Part shown: piece by piece, positions 44,792-62,028 of the stretch
Position numbering within the stretch: the stretch's first letter is position 1
How the letters are laid out: the number at the start of each line of letters is the position of its first letter
NCBI RefSeq assembly: GCF_017581925.1
Contig: NZ_JAGEVG010000014.1
Coordinates: 62,001 to 126,000 of the forward strand
Length of the DNA: 64,000 nt
Origin: Gelidibacter pelagius
GTDB lineage: Bacteria; Bacteroidota; Bacteroidia; Flavobacteriales; Flavobacteriaceae
Direction of reading: 5' to 3'
Made by a program: the position numbers and the translations under genes
Notes under the pieces: generated by a model
What the model saw: only the letters and a program-made list of their open reading frames with translations
Told to the model about the DNA's origin: nothing
The model's database searches: none

Positions 44792-47700
44792 ATGGATAAG
44801 ACATCAAAAAATATACAAATTAACAAGAATATACTTTGTTGTATGATGTATGTTTTTGGTATGGCTCAACTTTTTGGTCAATCCCAAGTATCTTTTAGGC
44901 AATTATCGGTTCATGACGGTCTTTCTCAAAATAGTGTGGTTTCTGTCACTCAAGACAGTATAGGCTATTTATGGTTAGCTACACAGGATGGTCTCAATAA
45001 GTATGACGGGCATCAATTTGAAATATTTAACGAGTTTTTTGTCGATATTACACGGCCCGATTACAGTTATTTGGGCCAAATTTATACCGATAGGGATGGC
45101 AATATTATTACAATTCCTATATCTAAAAACCCCCAAATCTATAATAAAAAGGAAAATAGATTTACTTCGTTTTCAAATTTGCAAGATGTCAGTACCGTAT
45201 TTCAGGATCGTAAAAAAAATTACTGGTTTGGGACCTACGCATCTGGTGTATTCAAGAAAGATTTTACAAGCGGCAGGATGGTTTCTGTGCTTTCATCCTA
45301 CCAAATAAAGACTATTTTTTCAATTGCTGAAGATCCTCAGGGAACGCTTTGGATTACTAGTCAGGGAAAAATCATAAGTATCGATCAAGACGGTGCCATC
45401 CAAAATTATTTTCCGGATGGCGATACAGATTCGAAAGTAAATTACAGCAAATTAATAGCAGATGGATTAGATGGGATTTGGCTAGGGACCTACGGGAATG
45501 GTTTGTGGCATAAGGATGGTGAATCGTCTGATTTTAAACGGATCAATGCTCTAAATGAAGATGATTTTGAGTTGCCGGACAATCTGAATATCTTATCGAT
45601 GCATTTAGATAAAAAAAACAGATTGTGGGTAGGAACTTTTGGCAACGGACTTTTTAAACTGAATCTCAACAGTTCTCAGATAAAACATTTTGAAGTAAAA
45701 AAACAAGATCCAAGAGCCATACGTCACAATGACATTCTATGCATTTTTGAAGACTACACGGGCACGCTGTGGTTTGGAACCGATGGCGCGGGAATTAGTT
45801 TTTATGATGAATATCTTGAGAAATTCAATTTCATAAATAATAACCAAACTCCGGAAGGTATCCATATTGATTTGGTGAGAGCCATCCATGTGGATAAGAA
45901 TAAAAAGGTTTGGATTGGTACCAGCGGCAAAGGTCTTTCTGCCTATTCACCGCAAACTAACCAATGGAAAACCTATGTCAGATCGAAGAACGGTTTGAGT
46001 TCTAACCGAATAGTGAGTTTATTTACAGATGATGTTGAAGATGAGTTGTGGATTGGAACACAAGAAGGTGGTTTAAACATCTTGCAGGCCAATGGAAGAA
46101 TAACCCATTACAACCATACGACCAGCATAGCCCTTCCTGCGCAAACCATTTGGAGTATTTTAAAAGACGAAGCTCAAAATATTTGGCTTTCAACCAGGGA
46201 TAATGGACTGATTCAATTTGATAAATATAAAGGGGTTTTAAAAATAATTGATGCTTCAAAGGGTTTAATGAGCAACAATATAAGAATTACCATCCCCGGC
46301 GAAAAGGATAAGCTCTGGATTGGTACAGAGGAAGATGGTGTTTTTTCATTTAACACTAAAACTGAAGTTATTACGGATGTCTTGAAAGATTTTCAGGTTG
46401 AAGATAAAAGTTTATTTAAAAAAATAAAATCGCTTTATTACGATAACAAGGGTCTGTTATGGGTAGGGACCAACGGGGATGGACTCGTGGTTTTTGACAT
46501 TAAGAACGGCGAATATTACCAATACACCATGGAAGACGGTTTGCCAAATAATGTGATTTATGCCATTCTTCCAGATTCAGAAAACAATCTATGGTTGAGT
46601 TCCAATAGAGGGATTACTATGATAGAACCTCCGGAAAATCTTAAACACAAACCAGTCATAGTCAATTATAATAATTATGACGGATTGGCCACCGAGTTCA
46701 ATACAGGAGCCTATTTTAAGGCCAAAAACAATAGTCTTTATTTTGGCGGGTTAGAGGGGTTCTATTGGTTCAATCCTGCCGAGATTCAAGAGAATAAAGT
46801 CATTCCAAAAACAGTTTTGACCAATTTCGAGGTGTTTAATAGAAGTCTCCCTTTAACCAATGATACTATCCTTAATTATAAGCAAAATACGTTATCATTT
46901 ACATTTTCAAGTTTACAGTTTTCGCTTCCTAAGAAAAATAATTATCGTTATAAGTTAGAGAATTATGATCAAGATTGGATCGACTCCAAGTTTACCAATA
47001 AGGTGAGATACACCAATTTGGCTTCAGGAAATTACCAGTTTTTAGTAAAATCAAGTAATTATGATGGTGTTTGGAATGACGTGCCGGAAAGTCTTTCTTT
47101 TGTTATCTCAAAACCATGGTATTTAAGTAATTGGATGCTTTTTGCCTATATTTTTCTGAGCATGGTATTGGCTTTTCTCACCTATTATTATTTTAAATGG
47201 CGTTGGAAAATGCAGTTGGACTTAAAACAGGAAAAAGAAGAATCGGTGCGATTAAAGCGGTTGGACGAATACAAAACAAAACTATACACCAATTTGGCCC
47301 ATGAATTTCGGTCGCCGTTAACGCTCATCACCGCGCCAATAAAAAAGCAATTGCTTCGCAATGATTTAAAGTCAGAAGCAAAAAACGATCTGAAATTAGT
47401 AGAACGTAACACTAACCAACTCTTAAACTTGGTCGATCAATTGCTGGAATTATCAAAGTTGGAATCTGGGAAGTTGAGACTCAAGGTGAAGCAGCATGAT
47501 TTAGGATTGTATTTAAAGGTAATTACGGAATCCTTTCAATTTTTGGCAGAGCAACATGGATTGAAACTTAAAGCCTCCATTCCGGAGATTGAGAATGCGT
47601 GGTTTGATGCAGATATTGTTGAAAAAATAGTAAACAACCTTTTTTCTAATGCTATAAAATATACGTCAAAAGGGGGAGAGATTTATTTACACGTGAAAGA

Positions 47701-48778
47701 AGATCATCTGGGGCGGTGTAAAATGACTTTTATAAACGATATCGATGGCATCGTAGAACAGAATATTTCCAAGATATTTAATCGATTTCATCAAATCAAT
47801 GAAGATTCGGAAGGCTCTGGGATTGGTCTTTCCTTAGTTAAGGAACTCGCTACTTTAGCCCACGGCACTATTGAGGCCTCCTATTTAGGAACCACAAAAA
47901 TGAAATTTGTAATCAATTTACCCATTAGAAAAGAGGCTTTTTCCGAAAACGAGATCGATTATACAGTACCCTTTCAAACGATTGAATCGCACCTAGAGAT
48001 AACGCCAAAGAACAAACAGCCCAATACAAAGCCAATCGCCTTGGTGGTTGATGATAACCAGGATATTCGAAACTTCATTAAATCGTTGCTGACCGCTGAT
48101 TTTAGGGTGATCAAGGCGAAAAACGGATCTGAAGGTATTGAAAAAGCGTTTAAGCACATTCCTGATATTATCATTTCGGATGTGGTCATGCCGATAAAGA
48201 CTGGATTTGAACTCTGTAAAACCTTAAAACAGGATGATCGAACGTCCCATATTCCGATTATTATGCTGACCGGAAAAACAGATGAAACCAATGAGATTAT
48301 AGGTTTGGCCACTGGTGCAGATGACTATATTACAAAGCCATTTAATCCCCGAACGTTTCAAATTAAGATTCATAATATTATAGAAAATCGGAAAAAATTA
48401 CATAAACGCTACCAACAGGATAATCTCTTTAGGCCTCAGGAAATTGCGGTAACATCAGCCGATGAAGTCTTTTTGAAAAAGGTTCAAAAAATATTGGATC
48501 AAAACTTATCTGATCCAGAGTTTAATGCCGATACGTTCAGTAAGCAGGTCGGTATGAGCCGAATGCAACTGCACCGAAAAATGTTGGCCTATACAGGACT
48601 TTCTACGTCAAATTTCATAAGATCACAACGCTTGAAACAAGCCACACTTATTCTGCAAGCTTCCGAATATAGCATCAATGAAGTGGCCTATATGGTCGGA
48701 TTTAATACTCCTTCCTATTTTATAAAATGTTTTAAGAAACTCTACGGAGAGACACCTAACGAGTATCTAAAAAAATAG
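44792..48778 (+). CDS. Hybrid two-component system regulator (HTCS)
   Basis: A 1328-residue inner-membrane sensor that carries a whole phosphorelay. It has an N-terminal signal/anchor (residues 1-30), a two-propeller periplasmic sensor of Reg_prop repeats (about 33-640; repeated LWIGT.GNGL motifs), Y_Y_Y (about 690-765), a membrane helix near 778-797, HisKA with His837 (LAHEFRSPLTL), HATPase (NLFSNAIKYTSKGG, GSGIGLSLV), a receiver with Asp1130 (IISDVVMP), and an AraC-type helix-turn-helix at the end. The ATPase G1 box reads NDIDGI rather than the usual DNGxGI. HTCS usually control sugar-use loci; here the downstream genes encode surface proteins, not SusCD. Confidence 0.93.
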   Translation: MDKTSKNIQINKNILCCMMYVFGMAQLFGQSQVSFRQLSVHDGLSQNSVVSVTQDSIGYLWLATQDGLNKYDGHQFEIFNEFFVDITRPDYSYLGQIYTDRDGNIITIPISKNPQIYNKKENRFTSFSNLQDVSTVFQDRKKNYWFGTYASGVFKKDFTSGRMVSVLSSYQIKTIFSIAEDPQGTLWITSQGKIISIDQDGAIQNYFPDGDTDSKVNYSKLIADGLDGIWLGTYGNGLWHKDGESSDFKRINALNEDDFELPDNLNILSMHLDKKNRLWVGTFGNGLFKLNLNSSQIKHFEVKKQDPRAIRHNDILCIFEDYTGTLWFGTDGAGISFYDEYLEKFNFINNNQTPEGIHIDLVRAIHVDKNKKVWIGTSGKGLSAYSPQTNQWKTYVRSKNGLSSNRIVSLFTDDVEDELWIGTQEGGLNILQANGRITHYNHTTSIALPAQTIWSILKDEAQNIWLSTRDNGLIQFDKYKGVLKIIDASKGLMSNNIRITIPGEKDKLWIGTEEDGVFSFNTKTEVITDVLKDFQVEDKSLFKKIKSLYYDNKGLLWVGTNGDGLVVFDIKNGEYYQYTMEDGLPNNVIYAILPDSENNLWLSSNRGITMIEPPENLKHKPVIVNYNNYDGLATEFNTGAYFKAKNNSLYFGGLEGFYWFNPAEIQENKVIPKTVLTNFEVFNRSLPLTNDTILNYKQNTLSFTFSSLQFSLPKKNNYRYKLENYDQDWIDSKFTNKVRYTNLASGNYQFLVKSSNYDGVWNDVPESLSFVISKPWYLSNWMLFAYIFLSMVLAFLTYYYFKWRWKMQLDLKQEKEESVRLKRLDEYKTKLYTNLAHEFRSPLTLITAPIKKQLLRNDLKSEAKNDLKLVERNTNQLLNLVDQLLELSKLESGKLRLKVKQHDLGLYLKVITESFQFLAEQHGLKLKASIPEIENAWFDADIVEKIVNNLFSNAIKYTSKGGEIYLHVKEDHLGRCKMTFINDIDGIVEQNISKIFNRFHQINEDSEGSGIGLSLVKELATLAHGTIEASYLGTTKMKFVINLPIRKEAFSENEIDYTVPFQTIESHLEITPKNKQPNTKPIALVVDDNQDIRNFIKSLLTADFRVIKAKNGSEGIEKAFKHIPDIIISDVVMPIKTGFELCKTLKQDDRTSHIPIIMLTGKTDETNEIIGLATGADDYITKPFNPRTFQIKIHNIIENRKKLHKRYQQDNLFRPQEIAVTSADEVFLKKVQKILDQNLSDPEFNADTFSKQVGMSRMQLHRKMLAYTGLSTSNFIRSQRLKQATLILQASEYSINEVAYMVGFNTPSYFIKCFKKLYGETPNEYLKK

Positions 48779-48978
48779 CAAATTCCCCGTCAAATGGCCT
48801 CAATGTTACACCTGTTCTATAGGTTGTTACAAATATGGTATCCCTTTACAAATCTCCTATCTAAATTTGTTTGCATAGTGCTTCATTAGTATTTAGACTA
48901 AAAATCACTATGAATGGAATTTAAAAACAACTGTGTTTTTTGTTCCACTAAAGATCAATCACCTAAAAATCAAACATA

Positions 48979-49428
48979 ATGAAAACTAAAATGATCCTAT
49001 GCCTGATTGTATTGGGTTTTGCAGTACAGAACACCTATTCACAGAGACGACAGTTGAAATCTACCAAAGTAGTATTTGTAGTGAATAAAAAGTCCAACAA
49101 GATTGAAGGTTTAGAGCTCTTCGAAAAAGAAAGCACTGAAATGCTGGTTAAAAAGTATCCTAAAAAGAAGTTCTTTTTAGGCGTGTTAAAAGGCAATTAT
49201 AAAATGGAGAATAATCGGATGAAACCAAATAAAGGAGCAGTCATTACCATGTATACGGATAAAAAGAAATTACCCGGAGATATGTTCCTTCCTGGAGATA
49301 TGTTTCTTCCTGGCGACATGTTTCTTCCTGGAGATATGTTTCTTCCAGGTGACATGTTCTCACTTGATAGATCAAAGTTTGAAGTTAAAGAAGTGAATGC
49401 TTCACAATTAATTTTTAATACCCTATAA
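48979..49428 (+). CDS. Secreted protein with five LPGDMF hexapeptides
   Basis: A 149-residue protein with a signal peptide (residues 1-22, ending TYSQ). After a Lys-rich beta-like domain comes LPGDMF repeated five times without interruption at residues 98-127, then a short tail. I recognise no family. It is the first gene after the hybrid regulator and 3 bp before the DUF4412 gene, so it probably belongs to that operon. Copy number of the repeat could vary by slippage. Confidence 0.8.
   Translation: MKTKMILCLIVLGFAVQNTYSQRRQLKSTKVVFVVNKKSNKIEGLELFEKESTEMLVKKYPKKKFFLGVLKGNYKMENNRMKPNKGAVITMYTDKKKLPGDMFLPGDMFLPGDMFLPGDMFLPGDMFSLDRSKFEVKEVNASQLIFNTL
49270..49359 (+). repeat. Five-fold 18-bp coding tandem repeat
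   Basis: Five 18-bp units each encoding LPGDMF; units differ only at wobble positions (GGA/GGC/GGT, GAT/GAC, TTC/TTT). Confidence 0.92.
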
Positions 49429-49431
49429 CTC

Positions 49432-50256
49432 ATGAAAACGCTAAAAGTTAAAACAAATCTGTCTCATTATTTGATATTATTACTGTGTTGCCTGGTTTTT
49501 GTCCCAGATGCGAATGCACAGTTTCTTAAAAAACTCAAAAAGCGAGTAGAACAAAAAGTAGAGAATGCAGTTATCGAAAAAACGGCCAATAAGGCCGCTG
49601 AAAAAGCGACCAAATCCATGGACAAAATGTTTGACATCAATCCGTTTGGAGGAAGTAAAGAAAAGGCAGATCCTTCTTTGGTTGCCGATAATTATGATTT
49701 CACTTGGAAATATTCATTAAAAATGTCCACTAAAGAAGGGGAGATCGTTTTTGATTATTATCTAAAACCTGATGCAGCTTATTTCGGATTCACTTCTGCA
49801 ATGATGAACAATATGTTCACGGTCATGGATACTGATCATAATATAATGGCTGTATTTATGGCGTCTGATGGTAACAATATTGGTATGGTCAATCAAATGC
49901 CAGAGATAGATTTAGAGGAAGCCAATGAAGTACCAGAAAATTTCACTTTTGAAACCTTGCCTGACAAAACCATAAACGGATATGATTGTAAAGGCGTCAA
50001 AGCGGTCAATGAGGACTATGAGATGACCATGTATTTTATTACGGATGCCGAAATAAGCTTTGATGACATTTATAAAAACAGCAGGACAAAAATTCCTGAT
50101 GCGCTCAAGGATTATTTCAATGAAGACGATAAAATTCTAATGATCCATATGGATATGAGAAATCTTAAAAATAAAAAAGAGAATGCCACCATGGAATGTA
50201 TAGGGCTTGAGGAAGTTCAAAAGTCGATCAACAAATCTGATTATACATTCATGTAG
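49432..50256 (+). CDS. DUF4412 secreted protein
   Basis: A 274-residue protein with a signal peptide ending in NANAQ (about residue 29), a Lys-rich amphipathic helix (LKKLKKRVEQKVENAV), and a DUF4412-type domain recognised by DKTINGYDCKGVKAVNEDYEMTMYFITD. The family is periplasmic or surface-located in Bacteroidota and its role is unknown. Same strand and 3 bp spacing link it to the hexapeptide protein. Confidence 0.82.
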   Translation: MKTLKVKTNLSHYLILLLCCLVFVPDANAQFLKKLKKRVEQKVENAVIEKTANKAAEKATKSMDKMFDINPFGGSKEKADPSLVADNYDFTWKYSLKMSTKEGEIVFDYYLKPDAAYFGFTSAMMNNMFTVMDTDHNIMAVFMASDGNNIGMVNQMPEIDLEEANEVPENFTFETLPDKTINGYDCKGVKAVNEDYEMTMYFITDAEISFDDIYKNSRTKIPDALKDYFNEDDKILMIHMDMRNLKNKKENATMECIGLEEVQKSINKSDYTFM

Positions 50257-50297: not shown

Positions 50298-52967
50298 ATG
50301 AAAAAACTACTACTTTTTTTGCTGAGCGTAACGTTTACAGTTACCCTATTTTCACAAACGACCTATACGGTTAACAGTGTGGACAATCTACCTGATAACA
50401 ATATTAATGACACGGTTTGTGCAGATGTCAACGGGAATTGCACTTTGAGAGCTGCCATTCAAAATGCAAATAAAACCAGCACGAAGGATGTCATTCATTT
50501 CAATATTTCTGGCACGGGACCATTTGTCATTGCGGTTATGGATGATATATTACCATCTATCACGAGACCTATTATCATCGATGGACGTACTCAGCCTGGT
50601 TATACTAATGCACCTCTCATCGAGATAGATGGCAATGCATTACCAACAGATAGAAATGGGCTACAACTTATAGGGAGTTCTGAGGGTAGTGAAATTTACG
50701 GATTAAGTATTGGTGGCTTTAAACGTTTAGTGGACTATCCATTTAGTCGGGGTTATGGGATATATGCAAATACTGGGAATCATATTATTCAGGCCAATTA
50801 TATTGGGATGAGGGGAGATGGAACGACCGTTAATGCCAACACTGGTGATGGTATGTATTTCAGAAATTCGGGCGGAAACCTTGTTGGAGGAGTCCAACCA
50901 AATCAGGGGAATTTAATTTCAGGAAACCGGGCAGCCGGAGTTACTTTTGAAGGCCTCGCCACAAATTCTGCCGCTACTAATAATAGGGTTCAAGGTAACT
51001 TAATTGGTACGGATATTACTGGGACTTTAAATAGAGGAAACGTTTATAATGTTCAATTTTTAAATGCCCACAACAATATTCTGGGAGGCAATACAGAGGC
51101 GGCCCGTAATATTATTTCTGGAAGCTATTCTGAAACTGATGACAAGGTAGGAACTGGAATCGCAGTTTCAGGACCGGAGGCTTATGGTAATAAAATTATC
51201 GGAAACTATATTGGTACGGATATTACGGGAACCAAATCCATTCCCAATGTAAGAGGCGGAATTTTTGTGCTGTTTGGAGCCCATGATAATGAGATTGGAA
51301 CCGATCAAGTGGGAGAAGGAAACCTAATTTCCGGAAATGGACTATTTGGCCTTTATTTTCAAGGTGATGACACTTTAGATTCTGTGAGTTCCAATACAGT
51401 TCAAGGAAACTATATTGGTGTTGATGTTACCGGAACTATCGCCCTGCCTAACGGAAGGGGCATAATTATGAATGGAGGACAAACCAATAATAATAGCATT
51501 GGTGGCACTTCAGTAAATTCTCGAAATGTGATCTCGGGGAATGATACCGGGATTTCTTTAACTAGTGGTAGGAATAACCTGGTGATCGGAAATTACATAG
51601 GATTAAACGCTGCGGGCAATGGGGCGGTGCCTAATGCCATAGGAGTATCCATTAGAGCTGCCTCGACAAACACGACCGTTGGAGGTGCTGATCCATCCAA
51701 TCGAAACATTATTTCTGGAAATAGCAATTTTGGAATTTCAGTTTCTGGGATTGGACACAATATTCAGAATAATTATATAGGATTAAATGCGCAGGGCACA
51801 GGAGTCATCAGCAATGGTTACGAAGGCTTAATCTTAGGCGGAACATTAACCGATACCAAGGTGTCCCACAATACGATTTCGGGTAACGGTACCATTATGG
51901 GCCGATCCATAAACGTGAGTTTTGTTTTAGCAGAGGAGGTTCATTTCTATAGCAATAAAGTAGGAACATTGCCCGACGGGAATACGGGAGTTATCAATGT
52001 GGGCGTTGGTTTGACATTGAATAGTTCCAGTAATAATAGGATAGGAGGTACTACTGCAGCTGAAGGGAATATCTTCGGCAATCATGGTACCCATGGCATA
52101 CTCATGGTTGAAAACTCGAGTAACAATAGCGTAGGGTATAATTCTATAGGCGTGGGTTTAGACGGTACTTCCAATATTGGAAATAACTATAGCGGTATCT
52201 TCATTACAGGTGCCAACACAGGTAATTCCATCAAGTATAACCGTATAGCAAATAACCAAACAGGCATAGAGTTAAGTCCTTCTTCAGGAACTCCAACTCA
52301 AGTATCCATTTTGGAGAACAGCATTTTTGATAATTCTTATATAGGAATTCATCTGGTGGGTGCAACTAAAAATGATATTGGCGATGCTGATACAGGGCCT
52401 AATAATCTTCAAAACACCCCAGAAATCAGTACCATTACGTATATGGGAGGAGGTCAGATAGAAATCATCTATGCCGTTCCAAGTTCCGTGACCAACTCTG
52501 CCTATCCTTTATGGATTGAGTTTTTTGGGGCAACCAATGATCAAGGCAAATTTTTTATAGATTCAGATTCATATACCGCTCCAGGAGTTAAAACCGTAAC
52601 TATAGAGCTTCCTAGTGGTTATGATCCCGCTGATTATGAAAACATTGTCGCTACGGCCACCGATGCCAATGGAAATACATCAGAATTTGGAGTGAATGTT
52701 AGTTATACCTTATCTGTTTCACAATTAGAACATCAAATGGTCAAACTTTATCCCAATCCAGTTACCGATAAATTATTTATTCAATCGCCATCTTCAAAAA
52801 ATTTCAATTTAAAACTGGTCAATAGTTTGGGGCAACTTGTAATGAGTCAAGATAGTAATAGTGCTTCCGCAGAATTGGATCTATCGTCATTATCAAGAGG
52901 CCTATATGTTTTGAACGTGATGGATGACAATAGGAATTTCCAAACAATTAAAATCATTAAAAACTAG
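50298..52967 (+). CDS. T9SS-secreted right-handed beta-helix protein
   Basis: An 889-residue surface protein. Signal peptide (residues 1-20, ending LFSQ), a CSLREA-like entry (CTLRAAIQNAN), then a long parallel beta-helix built of repeats of the kind NLISGN..GI, NVVQGNYIGTD.TGT, IGG.. (about 100-690), a linker, and a type IX sorting domain in the last 75 residues (LYPNPVTDKLFI, LVNSLGQLV, LSRGLYVLNV, ending KIIKN). Beta-helices of this kind are polysaccharide-active enzymes or adhesins; no catalytic residues can be named. Confidence 0.9.
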   Translation: MKKLLLFLLSVTFTVTLFSQTTYTVNSVDNLPDNNINDTVCADVNGNCTLRAAIQNANKTSTKDVIHFNISGTGPFVIAVMDDILPSITRPIIIDGRTQPGYTNAPLIEIDGNALPTDRNGLQLIGSSEGSEIYGLSIGGFKRLVDYPFSRGYGIYANTGNHIIQANYIGMRGDGTTVNANTGDGMYFRNSGGNLVGGVQPNQGNLISGNRAAGVTFEGLATNSAATNNRVQGNLIGTDITGTLNRGNVYNVQFLNAHNNILGGNTEAARNIISGSYSETDDKVGTGIAVSGPEAYGNKIIGNYIGTDITGTKSIPNVRGGIFVLFGAHDNEIGTDQVGEGNLISGNGLFGLYFQGDDTLDSVSSNTVQGNYIGVDVTGTIALPNGRGIIMNGGQTNNNSIGGTSVNSRNVISGNDTGISLTSGRNNLVIGNYIGLNAAGNGAVPNAIGVSIRAASTNTTVGGADPSNRNIISGNSNFGISVSGIGHNIQNNYIGLNAQGTGVISNGYEGLILGGTLTDTKVSHNTISGNGTIMGRSINVSFVLAEEVHFYSNKVGTLPDGNTGVINVGVGLTLNSSSNNRIGGTTAAEGNIFGNHGTHGILMVENSSNNSVGYNSIGVGLDGTSNIGNNYSGIFITGANTGNSIKYNRIANNQTGIELSPSSGTPTQVSILENSIFDNSYIGIHLVGATKNDIGDADTGPNNLQNTPEISTITYMGGGQIEIIYAVPSSVTNSAYPLWIEFFGATNDQGKFFIDSDSYTAPGVKTVTIELPSGYDPADYENIVATATDANGNTSEFGVNVSYTLSVSQLEHQMVKLYPNPVTDKLFIQSPSSKNFNLKLVNSLGQLVMSQDSNSASAELDLSSLSRGLYVLNVMDDNRNFQTIKIIKN

Positions 52968-52973
52968 TAAATA

Positions 52974-53066
52974 ATGAATGTGAAAAAACATCTAAAAATT
53001 GTCATGTTCCTTGCGCTATTTTCTTCATGCCAAGACCAGAAAGAGGAAGGGTCAAGTTTAAAATAA
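52974..53066 (+). pseudogene. Truncated lipoprotein leader
   Basis: A 30-codon ORF beginning with a lipoprotein signal (hydrophobic IVMFLALFSSC with Cys19) and stopping 11 codons after the cysteine. The 150 bp that follow have further stops and no continuing frame. It looks like the start of a lipoprotein gene cut by a stop or deletion, or a very short lipopeptide gene. It sits 6 bp after the beta-helix gene. Confidence 0.4.
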
Positions 53067-53739: not shown

Positions 53740-55146
53740 ATGAAATCACATTTATATACCAAAAATCTAGTTTGTACCAAGTTATTATTCATCGGAATAA
53801 CTTTATTGTTTTCTCAAGGCAGCAAGGGTCAATGCTGGCAATCAGTATCGGTTGGAAACACCCATACCATTGCATTGACTCCTGAAGGTAGCTTATGGAC
53901 TTGGGGTCTAAGCTCTTACGGTTTAGGGGATGGAAGTGTTCATTCTAATATCCCAAAACAATTAGGTACAGATACAGATTGGAAATTTATTTCGACAGAA
54001 AATAAGCATAGTTTTGCCATTAAAACCGATGGGTCGCTATGGGGATGGGGCTATAACTGGTCTGGGCAATTGGGAAACGGAACTAATACAGACTTAGAGT
54101 TTTTGACGAGAATCGGTACAGATACTGATTGGGATTGGGTATCGTCAGGTCCTAGTCACAGTGTGGGCATAAAAACTGATGGATCCTTATGGGCTTGGGG
54201 ATCTAATGTAAAAGGTGAATTGGGAAATGGTGGTTCAGAAAACTCACATCTGCCTATTCATATTATAAGTCAATATGACTCTACCAAGTGGGAAAAGGCC
54301 TTCGCTGGGGAAATTTTTACGATAGCCATAAAAACTGATGGCACCTTGTGGACTTGGGGACATAATTCAGGAGGGCAATTGGGCGATGGAACAACCACCG
54401 AAAAACGAGTGCCATTTAAAATAGGATCCGATACGGACTGGGCAACCATAGCTACGGGATATCAACACGTCATCGCAATAAAAACTGACGGCACCTTATG
54501 GGCTTGGGGTATTAATAATTTTGGGCAATTAGGTGATGGTACAAATTCACAACGAATAACCCCGACTCAAATAGGAACAGATACCGATTGGAAAGCGGTT
54601 GATGCAGGAGTTCACCATACTCTCACAACAAAAACGGATGGCACCTTGTGGGCATGGGGCTTGAATGGCGCAGGTTCAGTAGGCGATAATACCATCATTA
54701 ATAGAAATGCTCCTGTTCAAATTGGTATGGAGACTGATTGGCAATCTGTATCTGCGGGAAACCTTCAGTCAAAAGCCTTGAAAACAGATGGTAATATTTG
54801 GGCTTGGGGATATAACAACAGTGGTCAAGTAGGAAACGGACCTAGCACCGGATCAGTAAGAACTCCAGTTTTGACAAACTGTGCAGTGTTATCTCTTGAT
54901 GTTATAGAACAAAGTGTTTATTCAGTTTACCCAAATCCAGTCTCCAATATTTTAACTATTGAAACTCCAGTTGGCGCAAATTATAAATTGAAGGTTATAA
55001 ATCAATTAGGGCAACTTGTTTTAAGACAAAACAAGAATACATCGTCTTCTTCATTGGATGTTTCAACCTTATCAAAAGGTCTTTATTTTCTAAACATCAA
55101 CTCTGAGAATGATGGAAAGCAAACGGTCAAATTCATAAAGAACTAA
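53740..55146 (+). CDS. T9SS-secreted RCC1-like seven-bladed propeller protein
   Basis: A 468-residue surface protein. A signal peptide (ending KGQ, about residue 30) is followed by seven RCC1-type units, each with xWxWG preceded by KTDG(S/T)LW and followed by GQLG(N/D)GT, which makes a closed propeller (about residues 32-385). The last 70 residues are a type IX sorting domain (VYPNPVSNILTIETP, LSKGLYFLNI, ending KFIKN). Bacterial RCC1 repeats are binding platforms; the ligand is unknown. Its C-terminal domain closely resembles that of the beta-helix protein two genes up. Confidence 0.9.
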   Translation: MKSHLYTKNLVCTKLLFIGITLLFSQGSKGQCWQSVSVGNTHTIALTPEGSLWTWGLSSYGLGDGSVHSNIPKQLGTDTDWKFISTENKHSFAIKTDGSLWGWGYNWSGQLGNGTNTDLEFLTRIGTDTDWDWVSSGPSHSVGIKTDGSLWAWGSNVKGELGNGGSENSHLPIHIISQYDSTKWEKAFAGEIFTIAIKTDGTLWTWGHNSGGQLGDGTTTEKRVPFKIGSDTDWATIATGYQHVIAIKTDGTLWAWGINNFGQLGDGTNSQRITPTQIGTDTDWKAVDAGVHHTLTTKTDGTLWAWGLNGAGSVGDNTIINRNAPVQIGMETDWQSVSAGNLQSKALKTDGNIWAWGYNNSGQVGNGPSTGSVRTPVLTNCAVLSLDVIEQSVYSVYPNPVSNILTIETPVGANYKLKVINQLGQLVLRQNKNTSSSSLDVSTLSKGLYFLNINSENDGKQTVKFIKN

Positions 55147-55154: not shown

Positions 55155-55733
55155 ATGAAAAAATATATTTATGTATCAATTTTTATAGCGCTCTTTTTTT
55201 CTTGTAAAGGAAACGGGCAAACTACTGAACCTATATCGAACAATGACAGTCCCAATCCAGATAGTAATTTCGTGTTCAGCGGTGATTACGACGATTTACT
55301 CACCTTGGAAATGGCATCCAGAATTACCGGGTTCGATGCATCAAAGGCCAATAAAATGCACACAATGAAAGGGATGATGGGTGAAACCCTGCGGTATTAC
55401 TGGGAAAATGGAAGAGAAGAAGTGAAAGAAAAATCGGCTTCAAATCGTAAAACAGTGAGCTACCCACGATCTGATCTCGTTCAGTTAAAATGGGTGGACG
55501 GAGAAGCGGATATGGCATCTTTTTTAGACTTCATCGATCTTGAAGCACATCCAGAATTAGTAAAAATCAATGGCGTTGGCCAGCGTGCGTATTGGAATTC
55601 TGAGAAGCAACATTTAGAGGTGTATTATAACGGCGTTTCATTTACACTACAGGTCGATATTTCTAATGATGATAGTTTGGATAAAGAAAAAACCATCGAA
55701 TTGGCAAAATTAATTATTACTGAACAATTTTAA
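55155..55733 (+). CDS. Lipoprotein of unknown function
   Basis: A 192-residue lipoprotein: signal residues 1-16, lipobox FFSC with Cys17, a Ser/Asn/Pro linker, then a globular part (ASRITGFDASKANKMHTMKG; GVGQRAYWNSEKQHLEVYYN). I do not recognise the family. It lies 8 bp after the propeller gene and 9 bp before the next lipoprotein, in a tight series. Confidence 0.75.
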   Translation: MKKYIYVSIFIALFFSCKGNGQTTEPISNNDSPNPDSNFVFSGDYDDLLTLEMASRITGFDASKANKMHTMKGMMGETLRYYWENGREEVKEKSASNRKTVSYPRSDLVQLKWVDGEADMASFLDFIDLEAHPELVKINGVGQRAYWNSEKQHLEVYYNGVSFTLQVDISNDDSLDKEKTIELAKLIITEQF

Positions 55734-55742
55734 TTTCTACAG

Positions 55743-56339
55743 ATGAAACATACATCAAAAATACCAGTTTTTTTGTTGGCGCTTTCTATTTTATTTAGCT
55801 GTAAAAATGACACTAAAGTAGATGGAGAGACCATAATGAAATCGGTAAATACAGAAGTCTCTAAAGAGAAAAAAGACAGCCCGTCGAACTCTGAATTGGA
55901 AAAATTAAAAGAAGCGCTTATAAATAAAACGCCCTTGACTGATGAACAATTAGTGCGTGCATTTCCTAAGGAGTTGATGGGTTTTCCGTTGGATGAAGTC
56001 AATGCTATCCCAGGAATGTCACAAGTTTATGGGCAATTTAATAATGGGAAAATAGCACTTTCCATTGTCGATGCAGTTGGGAATAAAAACTCTGCAGCGA
56101 TCACGTTTCTTAGTTTTTATGAATACGTGCCGCCTTCCAATGAAAAGAGTAAACTAATCAAAATTGAAAGAGACGGTTTTAAAACGATAAGTGACTATAA
56201 GTATAACGAAACCGAAATGAAATTGCTTCTTGACAATCGTTTTATGGTTAATCTTAGTGCAAAAGCGATGACGCCCGATGAACTTTGGGAAACTTTTGAT
56301 ATAGAGTCCCTTAAAAAATATAAAGAATTGAACAGATAA
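55743..56339 (+). CDS. Lipoprotein, paralog A
   Basis: A 198-residue lipoprotein (lipobox LFSC, Cys20) with an acidic/Lys linker and a globular domain that matches the next gene: TPLTDEQLVRAFPKEL, SIVDAVGNKNSAA, DNRFMVNLSAKAM and LWETFDIESLKKYK. The family is not known to me. The paired copies suggest duplication within the operon. Confidence 0.78.
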   Translation: MKHTSKIPVFLLALSILFSCKNDTKVDGETIMKSVNTEVSKEKKDSPSNSELEKLKEALINKTPLTDEQLVRAFPKELMGFPLDEVNAIPGMSQVYGQFNNGKIALSIVDAVGNKNSAAITFLSFYEYVPPSNEKSKLIKIERDGFKTISDYKYNETEMKLLLDNRFMVNLSAKAMTPDELWETFDIESLKKYKELNR

Positions 56340-56377
56340 AGCTAATCATGGATAATTCTAAAAATCAGATCAAAATG

Positions 56378-56977
56378 AGAACAATAATCAAATTAATCTT
56401 CGTGATAGTGCTAATGGTGGCTTGTAAAGATGTCTCAAATTCCAAAGGTATAGAAAGTGTAATGGACGAAGTTGTTGGTAGAAATGATGTTATAAATGAA
56501 AAATACGACGCACTATTACAAGAGTTAGGCACGCAAACACCATTGACGGAAGCTGAATTGCTGGAAGCTTTTCCAAAACACTTGGGTGGTTTAAGTGGCG
56601 ATTCATCAACTCAACCACGTGTAACAAGCGATAATTCTGTAGTTGGCTCTTTTGGAGAACATGCCATTAGAATTAGAATGGAAATTTTAGATGCCGCCGG
56701 ACAAAACGCTATGGGTGCAGTACTTCCGCTGAAAATGCTACATCTCAATAAAGTGACATCTGAAATGAACAATACAATTCGATATTCAAAAAAAGAACGA
56801 AATGGAATCATGACTTTTGGAACCGATCGTGATGAAGACACTAAAGCTGATTTCCACTCTGAACTTAGGTTTTTATATAATGATCGATTTTATGTTACAT
56901 TAGAAGGTAAGAACATGAATGTTGAAGCACTTTGGGATACCTTTGATTTAAACGCCTTAAAGAATTTTAAAAACTAA
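56378..56977 (+). CDS. Lipoprotein, paralog B
   Basis: About 199 residues from ATG 56378, chosen because the signal peptide (MRTIIKLIFVIVLMVAC, Cys17) begins there; the upstream in-frame ATG at 56348 would place 10 polar residues before it. The domain matches the preceding gene (TPLTEAELLEAFPKHL, ILDAAGQNAMGA, NDRFYVTLEGKNM, LWDTFDLNALKNFK). Function unknown; probably a partner of paralog A. Confidence 0.78.
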   Translation, partial: RTIIKLIFVIVLMVACKDVSNSKGIESVMDEVVGRNDVINEKYDALLQELGTQTPLTEAELLEAFPKHLGGLSGDSSTQPRVTSDNSVVGSFGEHAIRIRMEILDAAGQNAMGAVLPLKMLHLNKVTSEMNNTIRYSKKERNGIMTFGTDRDEDTKADFHSELRFLYNDRFYVTLEGKNMNVEALWDTFDLNALKNFKN

Positions 56978-57013
56978 TAAAATTTCCAATCAACCACCTA
57001 ATTGAGATCTCAA

Positions 57014-60000
57014 ATGGCAACGGAAGAACCACATATATTACAACACAATTCCCGTCGTGCATTTATGCAAGAATTAGCATTGTGTTATTTGGCAGCGCAT
57101 ATGCCATTGACTTTTGTAGCGTGTTCAGATGAGGAACAATCTTATAAAGGTTCAGGGAAAATTCCTTATAAAGTCTGGGAAGAAATGCTCATGGCCTTGC
57201 AAACTTGTCCGGATTATTTGGAAGGTCGGATGAAAGCTTTGGTAGCCTCAAAGGATGCCGAGGCGATGTATAATTTTGTAAAGAACGAAATTTATCTAAT
57301 GCCTGCTTCAAATAAAGCCCTTGGTCAAATAGGTTGGCAATTTAAATGGGGGATTAAAGGCGTTTTGCGTTATGGAATGGCAACCCCACGAGAAAAGGCC
57401 GAATTATTAAGCCAAATGTATTCAGAAGCTGGATTTGTTTCTAAAGTGATGTATGAGCGCACCGATATTACTCCCGAAGAAGCGATGACCTTCTTTTTGC
57501 GACCAATACAAAGAAACTTCAATCTTGATGTTTCTGAACAGCAATGGAAGCAATGGAAAAAAGAACTGAATGTAGACGATTCCAACTTTGAAATGCCAGA
57601 TCAGAATATAGATGCCTCTCAGGCTGAAGTCCTCGCCGACAAGCTTTGGAGTCTTATTCCAGATAATGAAAATATCAGAAGAACCAATTTTGATTTACGC
57701 TGGGACAATTACCGGACACCCACAGTGCAATTTGAAAAGGATGGTATTACAGCTTATGCACATCTGTTTGATCCTAATATTTCTTTCGGAAAACTAAAAA
57801 ATGATGGCGCATTGAAGGAAGCCGATTCGGTAAAATTGAATGACGACACTGTCGAAATCAATATTACCTATAGGGAATCGATTCATCCCGATAAGGAATT
57901 GGAAATGATTTCGGGCAATTGGAAAGCGAGGGATTTAATAGGGAGTCAAATCCATTTTGCAAATCTTAACGGATTAGATTTAGAACAATCTGCCTATACA
58001 CCTATTGGCAGCTTGCGCATTTTTACGCCATCATTGGCCTATCAGAACTTTGACAGTCCACTTGAAGTTATGGAAGAGCGTTCATTTATTGCTGATCCTT
58101 TTACCTTGGAAGGTCAGAAAATACAACTTCCGGATATTCAAACAGGCAGCAAATCACCTATCGTTGTTAATTCATCTAGTGCACAATTACTTAAAACCAT
58201 AAGTGAAATTTCAATTAAGGCTCTTCCTGTAAATAAATCCTTGGTAAAACTGGAAGTAAGACCAACCAATGCTGATGGACAGGTTGTAGAAGGTTTGCAA
58301 GCCAGTGATTTTGCATTTGCAGATAATAAACAACCCATTCAGGTTTTAATGGAATCCAATAGGAAGACACCGTCAGTTCTAATTTTATATGATGGTTCTT
58401 ATAGCATGCCAAAAGCCTATTACCAAGAAAACATGGATCTTTTTGTGTCGTCAATTGAGGAGAAAATACTGGAAAATTTCCCTGCGGCCAAAGTTGGCAA
58501 ATGGGTTACCACTTCAAATTTGTTTACTTGGTTGTTGAAAGCATCTAAAACCAGTTACGATTTAGTGGTTTTTGCCACTGATGGTCATAATGATGATGTC
58601 TACGAGGAAAAGAATTTGGCAACCTACCAAAACGGACCACCAGTTATTATTCTTAATGTTTATAATTCTACTGCAACACATACCATAAATACGTTTAATC
58701 AAATGGCAGCTGTGACCAATGGTTCAGTAATTGATGCGGAAGATCAAGCAGCCACTTTAGAAGGAATTGTGTCTCATGTTAACGGTATGGATATCCCGCC
58801 ATATACCTTCTCATTTTATGCTATTTCCGAAGAAAATCATGAGGTGGAGCTTCAAATGGATCAAAAACGATTAATTGCAAAAGCACAATATACACTGGCA
58901 ACAGATTCCTCGGAAATCAACCAAGGCATTATCGGCATATATCTCAATATTAAAGTTGGCAAGACACTGGTAAAACGTGTTTTGGCAGGTTGGGATCCCA
59001 TTGCACAAAAAAATCAGGTACCTACCAATGCTGATTTTTTAGATGTAAAAAGTTTGATATTGGGCGGATTGAGTTTTTATTTTGAAGGTGAAGGACCAAC
59101 TATGGCAACCTCAATAGTGGATTTGCTAAAATATAAACTTTCAACCCGCGGCTGGGGCGAAGCGCTTTTGAATGACGATTTAGAAACTGCTAAAATAGAA
59201 TTTGAAAAAGGTGGATATCAGTACCATTCAAAGCCAATGTCTTTATTGGCGCCGTTAGATGACCATGTTACTGATAGTTCTTTCACATTTGCCTCCGGAA
59301 TGCGAGTTTGCATCTACAAGCAACAGCTTCATATTGAAGAGAAAAAGACTAAAGAGTCCTTTGATTTTTTACCAACGTCCAATTATGTGAGTTTTGCTAA
59401 AGACAAGGGAGATAGTTTTAAAGTCAATCTTGGCAAAACAGCGCAATTGGCCATACGGGAAGCAGCTCTTTTTGACACGAGCACCTTAACACTTTTAGGA
59501 GGAATACCCCTTGTTGAGCGTACTAACGCGCTTTCAAATAATTGGTATGAAAATTTGGATCGTAACAGCACGGATTATATGTATTGGTATGAACGTATTT
59601 ATCGGGGCGATGGCAATATAAAAATATTTGATGGCTCTGGAACCCAAACGGCATTTTGGACAATCAACGCTCAAGGTGAATTGTACGGAATTTTGAGAGA
59701 TGACACTGGCGGTGGTGGAAGTGAAGAGATGATTGCCGAGCTTAACAGAATAATGATTGTGATGAGTATCTACATATCTATTATCCAAAAAATGGGAGGT
59801 GTGAATTCCATTGGTGGGATGGCGCTTAGCATCGTTGCTACCTACGGCGTGACATTAACCAAGTTGTATGCTATAGTATGTGAATCTATTGTGATTATGG
59901 ATACAACTGGTATGGATGCTAAAATTACCCAAGCTTTAAAAGAATTGGCATTCAATGTTGCAAAAACCATTTGCTATGGTGTTGGTGGTGGGAGATTGGG

Positions 60001-60064
60001 AAGTATGCCCGGATTGGATAATCTTATCAGTTTCATGGGAGGAAGCACAAATCCCTATAGTTGA
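57014..60064 (+). CDS. VWA-domain lipoprotein with a cysteine-less transglutaminase-like segment
   Basis: About 1016 residues from ATG 57014 (an in-frame TTG lies 12 bp before). The N-terminus has a twin-arginine-like SRRAFM (13-18), a hydrophobic stretch and a lipobox-like FVAC (Cys37). Next comes a region like a transglutaminase core (GVLRYGMATPREKAELLSQM, YSEAGFVSKVMYE), but without the catalytic Cys. A VWA domain follows with the metal site DGSYS at Asp460 and TDGHNDD. The C-terminal 150 residues contain a Gly run (DDTGGGGSEE) and hydrophobic, possibly membrane-inserting segments (MIVMSIYISIIQKMGG). I know no named family for the whole. Confidence 0.8.
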   Translation: MATEEPHILQHNSRRAFMQELALCYLAAHMPLTFVACSDEEQSYKGSGKIPYKVWEEMLMALQTCPDYLEGRMKALVASKDAEAMYNFVKNEIYLMPASNKALGQIGWQFKWGIKGVLRYGMATPREKAELLSQMYSEAGFVSKVMYERTDITPEEAMTFFLRPIQRNFNLDVSEQQWKQWKKELNVDDSNFEMPDQNIDASQAEVLADKLWSLIPDNENIRRTNFDLRWDNYRTPTVQFEKDGITAYAHLFDPNISFGKLKNDGALKEADSVKLNDDTVEINITYRESIHPDKELEMISGNWKARDLIGSQIHFANLNGLDLEQSAYTPIGSLRIFTPSLAYQNFDSPLEVMEERSFIADPFTLEGQKIQLPDIQTGSKSPIVVNSSSAQLLKTISEISIKALPVNKSLVKLEVRPTNADGQVVEGLQASDFAFADNKQPIQVLMESNRKTPSVLILYDGSYSMPKAYYQENMDLFVSSIEEKILENFPAAKVGKWVTTSNLFTWLLKASKTSYDLVVFATDGHNDDVYEEKNLATYQNGPPVIILNVYNSTATHTINTFNQMAAVTNGSVIDAEDQAATLEGIVSHVNGMDIPPYTFSFYAISEENHEVELQMDQKRLIAKAQYTLATDSSEINQGIIGIYLNIKVGKTLVKRVLAGWDPIAQKNQVPTNADFLDVKSLILGGLSFYFEGEGPTMATSIVDLLKYKLSTRGWGEALLNDDLETAKIEFEKGGYQYHSKPMSLLAPLDDHVTDSSFTFASGMRVCIYKQQLHIEEKKTKESFDFLPTSNYVSFAKDKGDSFKVNLGKTAQLAIREAALFDTSTLTLLGGIPLVERTNALSNNWYENLDRNSTDYMYWYERIYRGDGNIKIFDGSGTQTAFWTINAQGELYGILRDDTGGGGSEEMIAELNRIMIVMSIYISIIQKMGGVNSIGGMALSIVATYGVTLTKLYAIVCESIVIMDTTGMDAKITQALKELAFNVAKTICYGVGGGRLGSMPGLDNLISFMGGSTNPYS

Positions 60065-60157
60065 TTATAGCGTTCCAACTGTACAGATAAACGAAGTTTA
60101 GCTTAGAAACAGATTTATGTATAACCGAGCCTCTGAAAGATTATAAACAGAAAAATC

Positions 60158-61084
60158 ATGAAAACATTAAAAAAAATTATCTTACTTCTGATACTAATTA
60201 TGGGATTTTCATCCTATGCTCAAACACCTGAGCAGCAAAAAATGATTGAGAAAGCCGAGCGGATGCGCGATAGCATTATGAATACGCCAGAGATTAAAGC
60301 CATCATGAAACAGGCTGGGGAGATGGAAAAAAATAAAAAAACGTCCCAAAAAGTAAAATCGATATCTTCAAGCACCAAAACCATAGATAAATACTGGCAC
60401 AACACGATGGCCAGTAAAAACAATAACAAACTGGAAAATTGGAAAAATGGAACAGCCGATCTTGTGTTTAGTTATTCTTACGATTCAAGAAAAGACCAAC
60501 TCAATTATGTGAAAGTTGGCGTAATTAAATCTGACGGCACTATCGAGTTGCATCCAACAAATGCAGTTCCTATTTTGCAACCCTTAAATAACTTCAAGAA
60601 TAACAATGCGTTTTATGATATTCACAATCCAGATTCTTATCATTATAACAATGGAGATGCAGGTTTTAAACTTAATTCATATTTATTAGTGTATCAAAAT
60701 GATCAAAAAATCGGAACATTAACCATTGGCAACTCCGTTAAAGTAACACGCAATTTATTAATCCCTGGAGACTTATATTTTGGTGATGAAGGTTATATAT
60801 TGTCATGGGTCTATGTTGATAAGCCATGTGCAGTCAATGCCAATGAAAATTGGAAAGGCGATTTAAGCAATACAGGAACACCATTAATAGTTGAAACCAA
60901 TGTAGTTTATAACTTAAGTTTTAAAACCGGTTGGAATTTAGTAGAGACAGAAGTGATTGGGACACATCATTTTCCGGATGCGCCAGAAGAGGATAGGTCG
61001 CGGTTTAAAAAACACGAGCATAGCATAATAGCTTCAATACCTAAGGATGCAACTTATTTTTTTAGAGCCGTGTTTAACGATTGA
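60158..61084 (+). CDS. Secreted protein related to the 61324 gene product
   Basis: A 308-residue protein with a signal peptide (ending SSYAQ, residue 22), a Lys/Met-rich helix (TPEQQKMIEKAERMRDSIM), and a beta-rich domain (YVKVGVIKSDGTIELHPT, GDLYFGDEGYILSWVYVD, NLSFKTGWNLVETEV). The domain aligns loosely with the protein encoded at 61324-62028. Unknown family. It follows the VWA gene with a 93-bp gap and could be its secreted partner. Confidence 0.72.
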   Translation: MKTLKKIILLLILIMGFSSYAQTPEQQKMIEKAERMRDSIMNTPEIKAIMKQAGEMEKNKKTSQKVKSISSSTKTIDKYWHNTMASKNNNKLENWKNGTADLVFSYSYDSRKDQLNYVKVGVIKSDGTIELHPTNAVPILQPLNNFKNNNAFYDIHNPDSYHYNNGDAGFKLNSYLLVYQNDQKIGTLTIGNSVKVTRNLLIPGDLYFGDEGYILSWVYVDKPCAVNANENWKGDLSNTGTPLIVETNVVYNLSFKTGWNLVETEVIGTHHFPDAPEEDRSRFKKHEHSIIASIPKDATYFFRAVFND

Positions 61085-61323
61085 AAGGTTCATTAAAACT
61101 GAAAGCTAAAGTCCAAATACTTCAAGCATCAAATTGTTGATGTGTTTTATAATCTAACAAAAACCCAGCAAGCAACATTGGGGCCTTGTATCGACGATAG
61201 CTTTATTGCGAATAGGCTTGTTAGGATTATTGGTCCTTTATGGTGATTGGCTGTTTTTGCTCCAAACTTATATCTTGAAATTACCGATGCATTATTTCAA
61301 TTATTAAACTAAAAACTAATCTC

Positions 61324-62028
61324 ATGAAAACATCAATTTTAATTATCAGTTTGTTTTTTATCACCTTAGGATTTTCCCAAGACCGACCAAAATTGGAGGA
61401 TTATGCATTGGCTAACTCAGATGTAAGTGTGGTCGTATTTCCATTCGGGATGGAGCATCCTATTACTATTGGTACGCTGACAAAATCGGGCGTAATCAAT
61501 TTCCAATTTCCTAAAACTCTTCCAGAGATTTCTAAGGAAACTGAAGAAAACTTTATGCAAGATTTGATTTACACGGTCTTTAGCGTGTGTAATGAAGGTC
61601 TAAGAATGATTTCTGATAAAGATAATCGTCCGTCTTTTGAAGCAGGAGCGCTCACACTAACCACTGCCGACAATCCTTATGCAGGTGTAATAATAGCTGT
61701 TTCTGACGAAGCGATGATGCCTTGGGTTCAAGATCCTGGTTATGAAGAGCCTGTTTTGGGTTCTTACTTTGAATTGATTTATGTGTCCTCTGCTTTTACA
61801 TATGAAGGCGAGTGTATTCAAACACGCTCGAGCATGAGTGATGATCCAGATATGGAAATTGCTTATAGTTTTAATCTGAACCTTAAAGAAGGTTTCAATT
61901 TTATCGAATATAAGATTGAAAATATCCATAAAACAGATCCCAATGTGATGGCGTCTTTTCCTGATAAAGTTTCGATTATATCCGTGGAAGGCATCCCCGA
62001 TTGTAAATGGATAGGAAAATACTTTTAG
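61324..62028 (+). CDS. Secreted protein, shorter relative of the 60158 gene product
   Basis: A 234-residue protein with a signal peptide (residues 1-19, ending GFSQ). Shared layout with the upstream protein: GTLTKSGVINFQFPK with VGVIKSDGTIELHPT, and FNLNLKEGFNFIEYKIE with YNLSFKTGWNLVETEV. Function unknown. Separated from its relative by 239 bp that hold no evident gene, so it may have its own promoter. Last member of the surface-protein block. Confidence 0.72.
   Translation: MKTSILIISLFFITLGFSQDRPKLEDYALANSDVSVVVFPFGMEHPITIGTLTKSGVINFQFPKTLPEISKETEENFMQDLIYTVFSVCNEGLRMISDKDNRPSFEAGALTLTTADNPYAGVIIAVSDEAMMPWVQDPGYEEPVLGSYFELIYVSSAFTYEGECIQTRSSMSDDPDMEIAYSFNLNLKEGFNFIEYKIENIHKTDPNVMASFPDKVSIISVEGIPDCKWIGKYF

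What the first reader, a model, noticed from the sequence alone, without database searches (positions are those of the whole stretch)
44792..62028. Unrecognised 17-kb surface-protein block under a hybrid two-component regulator
A full HTCS is followed by about a dozen same-strand, tightly spaced genes. Nearly all encode signal peptides, lipoboxes or T9SS domains: hexapeptide protein, DUF4412, beta-helix, RCC1 propeller, three lipoproteins, a VWA lipoprotein, two related secreted proteins. HTCS normally drive SusC/SusD and carbohydrate-enzyme loci; none is present. The set suggests an envelope or adhesion apparatus with a VWA core that I cannot match to a described system. Gene content and spacing are seen; coordinated function is inference.
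Basis: partly seen in the sequence, partly recalled or inferred. Interest (0 to 1): 0.75.

Follow-up and report, generated by a model that had tools for sequence, protein, structure and literature searches.

The report
Regulator-swapping surface-protein locus in flavobacteria
A block of about a dozen neighbouring genes for cell-surface proteins, including one with an integrin-like binding domain, recurs in many marine bacteria under several different switches and looks like an undescribed, inducible surface-contact apparatus.

Summary
The block is real. Near VWA relatives in 46 database loci, its genes recur: DUF4412 in 35, the 55743 lipoprotein in 28, HTCS in 17, 60158 and 61324 in 10 each (lower bounds, flanks are short). 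All 186 ORFs of nine shared families lie on the VWA strand. A flanking gene (HemN-type, 40899), present in 25 of 25 genomes searched, lies near the block, by coordinates, in the three Gelidibacter genomes and perhaps two others. The VWA protein has a twin-arginine motif (39 of 39), a lipobox cysteine, often an acidic surface-export-like motif, invariant MIDAS-type residues, and a modelled domain matching integrin I domains (Z 13.7).

Two corrections. The HTCS is one of three exchangeable regulator types, at least 7 switches on the VWA tree; the nearest relative, 85% identical in VWA, has a sigma/anti-sigma-like pair instead. VWA is no obligate core: four genomes keep DUF4412, lipoprotein and 60158/61324-type genes together without it, one of the same genus at the same chromosomal site.

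Best explanation: an inducible, modular surface adhesion or recognition apparatus (0.45). Shared function is inferred from conserved neighbourhood. I found no described system that it fits.

The parts
44792..48778 (+). Hybrid two-component regulator (Reg_prop propeller, Y_Y_Y, HisKA, HATPase, receiver, AraC-type HTH)
   Evidence: Pfam; 28% to best other HTCS of the genome, 38-68% to HTCSs of 13 other VWA loci
48979..49428 (+). Secreted protein with about five GDMFLP repeats (family HEX)
   Evidence: by eye; relatives in 15 of 47 loci
49432..50256 (+). DUF4412 protein
   Evidence: Pfam 24.9 bits, cut-off 21.6; in 36 of 47 loci
50298..52967 (+). Beta-helix protein with T9SS sorting tail
52974..53066 (+). 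Short remnant of a further LIP lipoprotein gene, where L014 and L008 have a longer one
53220..53729 (+). DUF3592 protein, probably in the membrane
   Evidence: in 7 of 47 loci
53740..55146 (+). RCC1 propeller with T9SS sorting tail
55155..55733 (+). Lipoprotein, no family; rare (3 of 46 loci)
55743..56339 (+). LIP-family lipoprotein
   Evidence: 32 of 47 loci have the family; model with core pLDDT above 90; fold matches inconclusive
56375..56977 (+). LIP-family lipoprotein, second copy (ORF open from 56348)
57014..60064 (+). VWA lipoprotein (ORF open from TTG 57002)
57053..57124 (+). Twin-arginine motif and lipobox cysteine of the VWA protein, followed by SDEEQ
   Evidence: RR in 39 of 39; cysteine 23-24 residues on in 38 of 38 readable rows
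58364..58795 (+). VWA domain (residues 455-598 counted from 57002), MIDAS-type D464, S466, S468, D527
59729..59899 (+). Most hydrophobic part of the VWA protein, helical, low confidence
60158..61084 (+). Secreted S4-family protein
   Evidence: 16 of 47 loci have the family
61324..62028 (+). Secreted S4-family protein

Best explanation
The block is one copy of a recurring, modular locus of Flavobacteriaceae that, on a periplasmic or envelope signal read by an exchangeable regulator (here the HTCS), puts a set of proteins on the outer surface for contact with a partner: a cell, a surface or a glycan. Proposed steps: (1) the HTCS propeller senses a ligand and the AraC-type domain switches the genes on (family knowledge, not tested). 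(2) The VWA protein folds inside, leaves by the Tat route, is lipidated and, helped by its acidic post-cysteine motif, reaches the outside (motifs seen; export inferred). (3) Its MIDAS-bearing VWA domain binds a protein through a metal ion, as integrin I domains do (residues and modelled fold seen; binding inferred). (4) LIP, DUF4412 and S4 proteins help to assemble, dock or regulate it (inferred from neighbourhood and from two chains that hold an S4-like and a LIP part). (5) T9SS cargo adds locus-specific binding surfaces (tails seen; role inferred).
For: Recurrence with VWA across genera; one strand, 186 of 186; genome-level enrichment of LIP, S4 and DUF4412 with VWA; VWA fold and invariant metal-site residues; twin-arginine, lipobox and, in 29 of 38 relatives, at least two acidic residues at +2 to +6, where published export signals are SDDFE and SDDDD (PMC5080379, passages); T9SS tails on two genes; locus-specific HTCS; repeated regulator exchange around the same output genes.
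Against: No expression, localisation or binding data. Foldseek's own list for the VWA model mixes integrins with Rossmann-type enzymes. The acidic motif is absent in 9 of 38 and has no background control. LIP fold matches are inconclusive. Eight of 47 loci show none of DUF4412, LIP, S4 (some are cut short). VWA is missing from related blocks. LIP has copies away from VWA, so genome-level LIP counts are not adjacency. Large gaps suggest more than one transcript.
Confidence: 0.45

Rival explanations
1. An antagonism locus with exchangeable cargo: secreted effectors act on neighbouring cells, and LIP lipoproteins, often in several diverged copies, protect the producer; VWA docks effectors or targets.
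For: A thiol-cytolysin domain lies in block L010 and in the VWA-less block L119; a surface lipoprotein gives immunity to a CDC-like toxin in Bacteroides (PMC11169675, passages); 14 of 47 loci have two or more LIP copies; LIP's weak fold matches include two T6SS immunity proteins.
Against: The window block has no such domain; the cluster family that holds the cytolysin also holds hemopexin proteins and is in only 5 of 47 loci; the LIP fold matches are inconclusive.
Confidence: 0.22
2. An envelope-maintenance or stress response: the regulator senses envelope damage and the lipoproteins, DUF4412 and VWA act as periplasmic or outer-membrane housekeeping factors.
For: LIP's weak fold matches include RseB and MucB C-terminal domains; sigma/anti-sigma-like pairs control some copies; LIP relatives also sit elsewhere in genomes.
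Against: Patchy occurrence (VWA in 7 of 199 genomes), T9SS cargo, surface-export-like motif.
Confidence: 0.15
3. A glycan-responsive capture locus: a PUL-like device without SusC/SusD in which propeller and beta-helix proteins bind polysaccharide.
For: HTCSs of this build bind oligosaccharides in Bacteroides (PMC3243724, passages).
Against: No SusC/SusD near; no carbohydrate-active family above its cut-off among the block proteins; other copies use other regulators.
Confidence: 0.13
4. Neighbours without a common function.
For: Gene order and content vary; members occur apart, for example an S4 gene without LIP or VWA in L121.
Against: Recurrence across genera at VWA identities down to 32%, one strand throughout, chains holding both an S4-like and a LIP part.
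Confidence: 0.05

Closest known systems
HTCS-controlled polysaccharide utilization loci
   Same: HTCS next to a run of surface and secreted protein genes (PMC3243724, passages)
   Different: No SusC/SusD in the block; other copies of the locus use other regulators
Mfa5, VWA-bearing fimbrial tip protein of Porphyromonas gingivalis
   Same: Bacteroidota surface protein with a VWA domain (PMC7835359, abstract)
   Different: Belongs to type-V fimbriae of the mfa1 operon; here a twin-arginine lipoprotein with other partners; no direct comparison made
CDC-like (CDCL) toxin operons of Bacteroidota
   Same: Some related blocks hold a thiol-cytolysin domain and lipoproteins
   Different: The window block has none
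MoxR-vWA ternary conflict systems
   Same: A vWA protein in a variable, regulated gene set
   Different: Defined by an AAA+ MoxR partner (PMC7159879, passages); none here, and this VWA protein looks exported

Membership tests
Hybrid two-component system (gene 44792) | Sensor, kinase, receiver and AraC-type HTH in one chain | tested here: met
Polysaccharide utilization locus | SusC/SusD pair | tested here: not met
   0 of 18 SusD hits on the contig; nearest of 49 plug hits about 71 kb away
VWA / integrin I-domain fold (57014) | Rossmann-like I-domain fold | tested here: met
   Z 13.7, rmsd 2.4 over 131 residues; Foldseek best E 2.5e-4, integrin beta3
VWA / integrin I-domain fold (57014) | MIDAS DxSxS and distal acidic residue | tested here: met
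   D464, S466, S468, D527 in 39 of 39; the motif itself is recalled
VWA / integrin I-domain fold (57014) | Metal-dependent ligand binding | not testable with these tools
   needs a bench test
Tat-exported lipoprotein | RR motif and lipobox cysteine | tested here: met
   RR 39 of 39; cysteine 23-24 residues on in 38 of 38 readable rows; motifs recalled, no predictor run
Surface-exported lipoprotein (LES) | Acidic stretch after the +1 cysteine | tested here: inconclusive
   SDEEQ here, at least two acidic residues in 29 of 38; no background control
T9SS cargo (50298, 53740) | C-terminal sorting domain | tested here: met
   PF18962 53.5 and 57.0 bits; TIGR04183
MoxR-vWA ternary system | AAA+ MoxR partner | tested here: not met
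   no AAA family among the block proteins
CDCL toxin locus | Thiol-cytolysin-type domain | tested here: not met
   none in the window block; present in L010 and L119
Mog1/PsbP/RseB-C-like fold (LIP) | Shared fold standing well above unrelated rows | tested here: inconclusive
   best Z 8.1, many rows 5-8, no Foldseek E below 0.001
Transglutaminase-like fold (N-terminal part of the VWA protein) | Transglutaminase core | tested here: inconclusive
   PF01841 in 3 of 39, best E 0.025; 3kd4 E 0.39; not folded alone

The most novel reading that the evidence does not exclude
A categorically new kind of bacterial surface module: a Tat-folded, integrin-like VWA lipoprotein displayed with DUF4412, LIP and S4 partners, carrying interchangeable cargo (propellers, beta-helices, leucine-rich repeats, hemopexin or CDC-like pore-former domains) under interchangeable regulators; a plug-in contact apparatus used for kin recognition or antagonism.
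Probability: 0.3. Interest if true: 0.85.

Novelty: new variant of a known kind. Interest (0 to 1): 0.6.

Why it matters
If true, HTCSs, known mainly as switches for glycan use, also run an unrelated surface programme, and the same programme has been re-wired repeatedly to other sensors. That offers a natural experiment: close relatives (the window and Gelidibacter maritimus, 85% identity in VWA) with the same output genes under different regulators, and a member of the same genus that has lost VWA at the same site. It would also give testable roles to several families without one (DUF4412, LIP, S4) and to a Tat-type integrin-like surface protein in marine flavobacteria.

Tried and rejected
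PUL with unannotated SusC/SusD: rejected by whole-genome searches. Anti-phage defence: PADLOC on 8 proteins gave one weak match, E 0.0083. MoxR-vWA system: no AAA partner. Odd base composition: GC 0.372 in the block, 0.376 upstream. Promoters: TANNTTTG 92 against 84.6 expected; sigma-70 and terminator scans near chance. Solved-structure sequence searches gave nothing useful for LIP, S4, DUF4412.

Rows dropped or limits: the raw LIP tally of 144 of 199 genomes was not used, as weak rows cover mainly the signal-peptide end; I counted 26 genomes at E below 1e-10. S4: one weak genome (G169) dropped, 16 left. VWA: one partial hit (G126) dropped, 7 left. The order-level VWA search found 1 of 246 (the window's own genome); the rows shown were largely one genus, so it says little. 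My first left-edge control (seven upstream genes in 0-1 of 46 loci) is weak, because only 16 of the 46 loci hold 3 kb or more beyond the first block gene; I replaced it by the HemN search (25 of 26 loci's genomes held, chosen from 46). In the tree L017 (ECF and LytTR genes) was counted as ECF, L020 (ECF pair and HTCS) as HTCS, L010 (TPR-hybrid) as HTCS; 11 rows labelled none may have a regulator beyond the DNA held (L011 and L036 are cut there). The quick tree has long branches (L022 meets L051).

Full report
What is there. The window is 62001-126000 of contig C9 of a 4.49-Mb genome; the closest named relative of its VWA protein is in Gelidibacter maritimus (84% in the search, 85% in alignment A2). 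From 44792 to 62028 lie a full HTCS and eleven same-strand genes. Gaps are 3-93 bp except three of 200, 252 and 239 bp, so several transcription units are likely. The 252-bp gap holds a short remnant of another LIP lipoprotein gene.

Is it more than chance? One scan of genome contigs with a four-sequence VWA alignment gave 46 distinct loci, titled as Flavobacteriaceae or its genera except three Bacteroidetes or Bacteroidia MAGs. Block genes with a relative in these loci: DUF4412 35, 55743 28, 56348 25, HTCS 17, repeat protein 11, 60158 10, 61324 10, DUF3592 6, beta-helix 4, RCC1 4, 55155 3. With family profiles and counting the window (47 loci): DUF4412 36, LIP 32, S4 16, repeat protein 15; 39 of 47 have at least one of DUF4412, LIP, S4, and all 186 ORFs of nine shared families lie on the VWA strand. 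These are lower bounds: 34 of 46 loci hold 9 kb or more before VWA.

Edges. On the right, YjbR and PhnA recur in 3 of 46 VWA loci, all Gelidibacter, although they also flank three VWA-less blocks, L105, L118 and L119, the last two from other genera. On the left, the first control (seven upstream genes in 0-1 of 46) is weak, as few loci hold that DNA. A better one: the HemN-type gene 40899 has a strong relative in 25 of 25 genomes behind 26 chosen loci (one not held). By coordinates it can lie within about 25 kb of the block, on its left as here, in the three Gelidibacter genomes (L008, L014, L020), and perhaps near it in two more (L031, L033); in the other 20 it is more than 30 kb away or on another contig (against the ranges; contig identity is assumed, as contigs are unnamed). 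HemN-type also lies in the VWA-less locus L119. So the flanks are largely a site shared by close relatives, while the block recurs at many sites.

Genome-level test. In a sample of 199 genomes of the family, VWA is in 7, strong LIP hits in 26, S4 in 16, DUF4412-type hits in 88 (many cover only the first 70 residues, which OmpA-type proteins share). With VWA against without: LIP 6 of 7 and 20 of 192 (p 2e-5), S4 4 of 7 and 12 of 192 (p 9e-4), DUF4412 7 of 7 and 81 of 192 (p 0.003). These counts are presence in the genome, not adjacency: the strong LIP hits of G029 and G054, for instance, are not beside VWA, and seven other fetched LIP loci (L109-L113, L123, L124) show no other block family.

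Without VWA. G013, of the same genus, keeps the flanks (OMP, RuvC, HemN, cyclase; YjbR, PhnA), an HTCS 70% identical to the window's, DUF4412, DUF3592, the 55155 lipoprotein, LIP pieces with a stop, and two S4 genes, but no VWA. G069, G073 and G038 also have DUF4412, LIP and S4 together without VWA.

The VWA protein. No Pfam family at E 1 for the window protein; NCBIfam TIGR03436 weakly just before the VWA domain, 16.5 bits against a cut-off of 81. Among 39 long relatives R18, R19, F21, D464, S466, S468, T503, D527 and D532 are invariant. The model (pLDDT 77.9, pTM 0.78) has an I domain at 455-598, Z 13.7 to LFA-1; Foldseek ranks integrin beta3 first (E 2.5e-4) but then many Rossmann-type enzymes. 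The N-terminal region resembles a transglutaminase core only weakly; the usual cysteine, as I recall the motif, is not there. The last 110 residues or so are helical, poorly predicted and the most hydrophobic part. After the lipobox cysteine the window reads SDEEQ and G. maritimus SDDDQ; 29 of 38 relatives have two or more acidic residues there, 9 do not. Published surface-export motifs are SDDFE (Flavobacterium johnsoniae) and SDDDD (Bacteroides fragilis) (PMC5080379, passages read).

Regulators. Three kinds adjoin the block: HTCS-length proteins before DUF4412 in 13 of 46 loci (a small ORF between in six); response-regulator and kinase pairs in 9 (one kinase tested by Pfam, L009; LytTR type by eye); sigma-like and anti-sigma-like pairs in 11. 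The sigma protein tested, L017, is below the Pfam cut-offs and the anti-sigma one, L008, shows TPR repeats, so these two names are tentative. A TPR-CHAT protein beside the pair was tested in L021 only. On the VWA tree the labels need 12 changes, or 7 without the 11 rows that show no regulator; they are still more clustered than shuffled ones (20.6 changes). The window (HTCS) and its sister L008 (sigma pair directly before the repeat protein; only 3.5 kb more is held) differ, and L020 has both. The window HTCS is 68% identical to that of L020 and 38-45% to the other 12; for 9 of these the best single alignment covers only about 790-870 residues, and the weakest scores 501 bits against 499 for the genome's own best other HTCS, which is 28% identical over its full length. 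That other HTCS lies 3.5 and 7 kb from TonB-plug and SusD hits, a fitting positive control.

Partners and cargo. LIP models confidently (131 of 198 residues at pLDDT 90 or more), but its fold matches are a mixed set of RseB-C, Mog1/PsbP, DcrB, LpqN, SciW and T6SS immunity proteins at Z 5-8. L015 and L019 hold, by reading the sequences, an S4-like and a LIP part in one chain. Large secreted proteins vary: beta-helix and RCC1 here, leucine-rich repeats and a beta-helix relative (L118), other T9SS-tail proteins (L011, L019, L045, L106, L115), hemopexin repeats (L019, L021), an astacin-type protease (L021), a thiol-cytolysin domain (L010, L119). The L010 cytolysin-domain protein and an L019 hemopexin protein share a C-terminal domain, 32% over 242 columns.

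Mechanism. Shown: gene content, conserved neighbourhood, strand, motifs, model folds, regulator exchange. Inferred: shared control, Tat export and surface display, metal-dependent binding, joint assembly. I favour an inducible surface adhesion or recognition apparatus (0.45), with antagonism (0.22), envelope maintenance (0.15) and glycan-responsive capture (0.13) as rivals.

Known or new. Papers were searched for DUF4412 (0 papers), CDC-like proteins, CHAT with sigma factors, lipoprotein export signal, HTCS with RCC1, Gelidibacter, VWA and T9SS, cytolysin with hemopexin, VWA with Flavobacteria, transglutaminase-like with VWA. In the listings shown I saw none that describes this locus; lists were capped, and the library lacks most subscription journals. 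Passages or abstract only were read of PMC5080379, PMC11169675, PMC3243724, PMC7159879 and PMC7835359. The tests exclude a PUL, a MoxR-vWA system and, for the window, a CDCL locus. It remains a sensor-controlled surface-protein locus, hence 'new variant of a known kind', with a bolder reading left open.

Noticed in passing
L015:15596-16846 and L019:15479-16678: Single chains that, read by eye, hold an S4-like part followed by a LIP part, hinting that the two families act together.
   Followed up: partly
L010:5735-7723 and L019:7230-8618: A thiol-cytolysin-domain protein and a hemopexin-repeat protein share a C-terminal domain (32% over 242 columns), as if N-terminal domains were swapped on a common tail.
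   Followed up: partly
L021:2423-5551 and similar genes beside the sigma-like pair: TPR-CHAT (caspase-like) proteins with an apparent signal peptide and C-terminal membrane segment sit beside a sigma-like/anti-sigma-like pair; Pfam-tested in L021 only.
   Followed up: partly
L015:13109-15343 and L122:11238-13400: Related lipoproteins with a caspase-like stretch (by eye); Pfam found no family at E 0.01.
   Followed up: no
L109-L113, L123, L124: A LIP relative in a conserved setting away from the block, beside genes that look like ribonucleotide reductase (by eye, recalled), so LIP may have a housekeeping form.
   Followed up: partly
window 49432-50256 and L105:7442-8746: The first 70 residues or so of the DUF4412 protein are shared with proteins of about 430-480 aa; one, in L105, has an OmpA domain.
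   Followed up: partly
window 49279-49365 (about): About five 18-bp repeats coding GDMFLP with synonymous differences between copies; relatives in other loci have related PGD-type repeats or none.
   Followed up: no
window 52974-53066: Remnant start of a third LIP gene with a stop; L014 has a full-length LIP at this place.
   Followed up: partly
L009, L012, L023, L043, L044: A gene resembling a tyrosine recombinase (by eye) lies in five of the loci, which may bear on how the block spreads.
   Followed up: no
L020 and L051; L015 and L016: Two VWA copies in Gelidibacter gilvus and in one Ulvibacter MAG.
   Followed up: no
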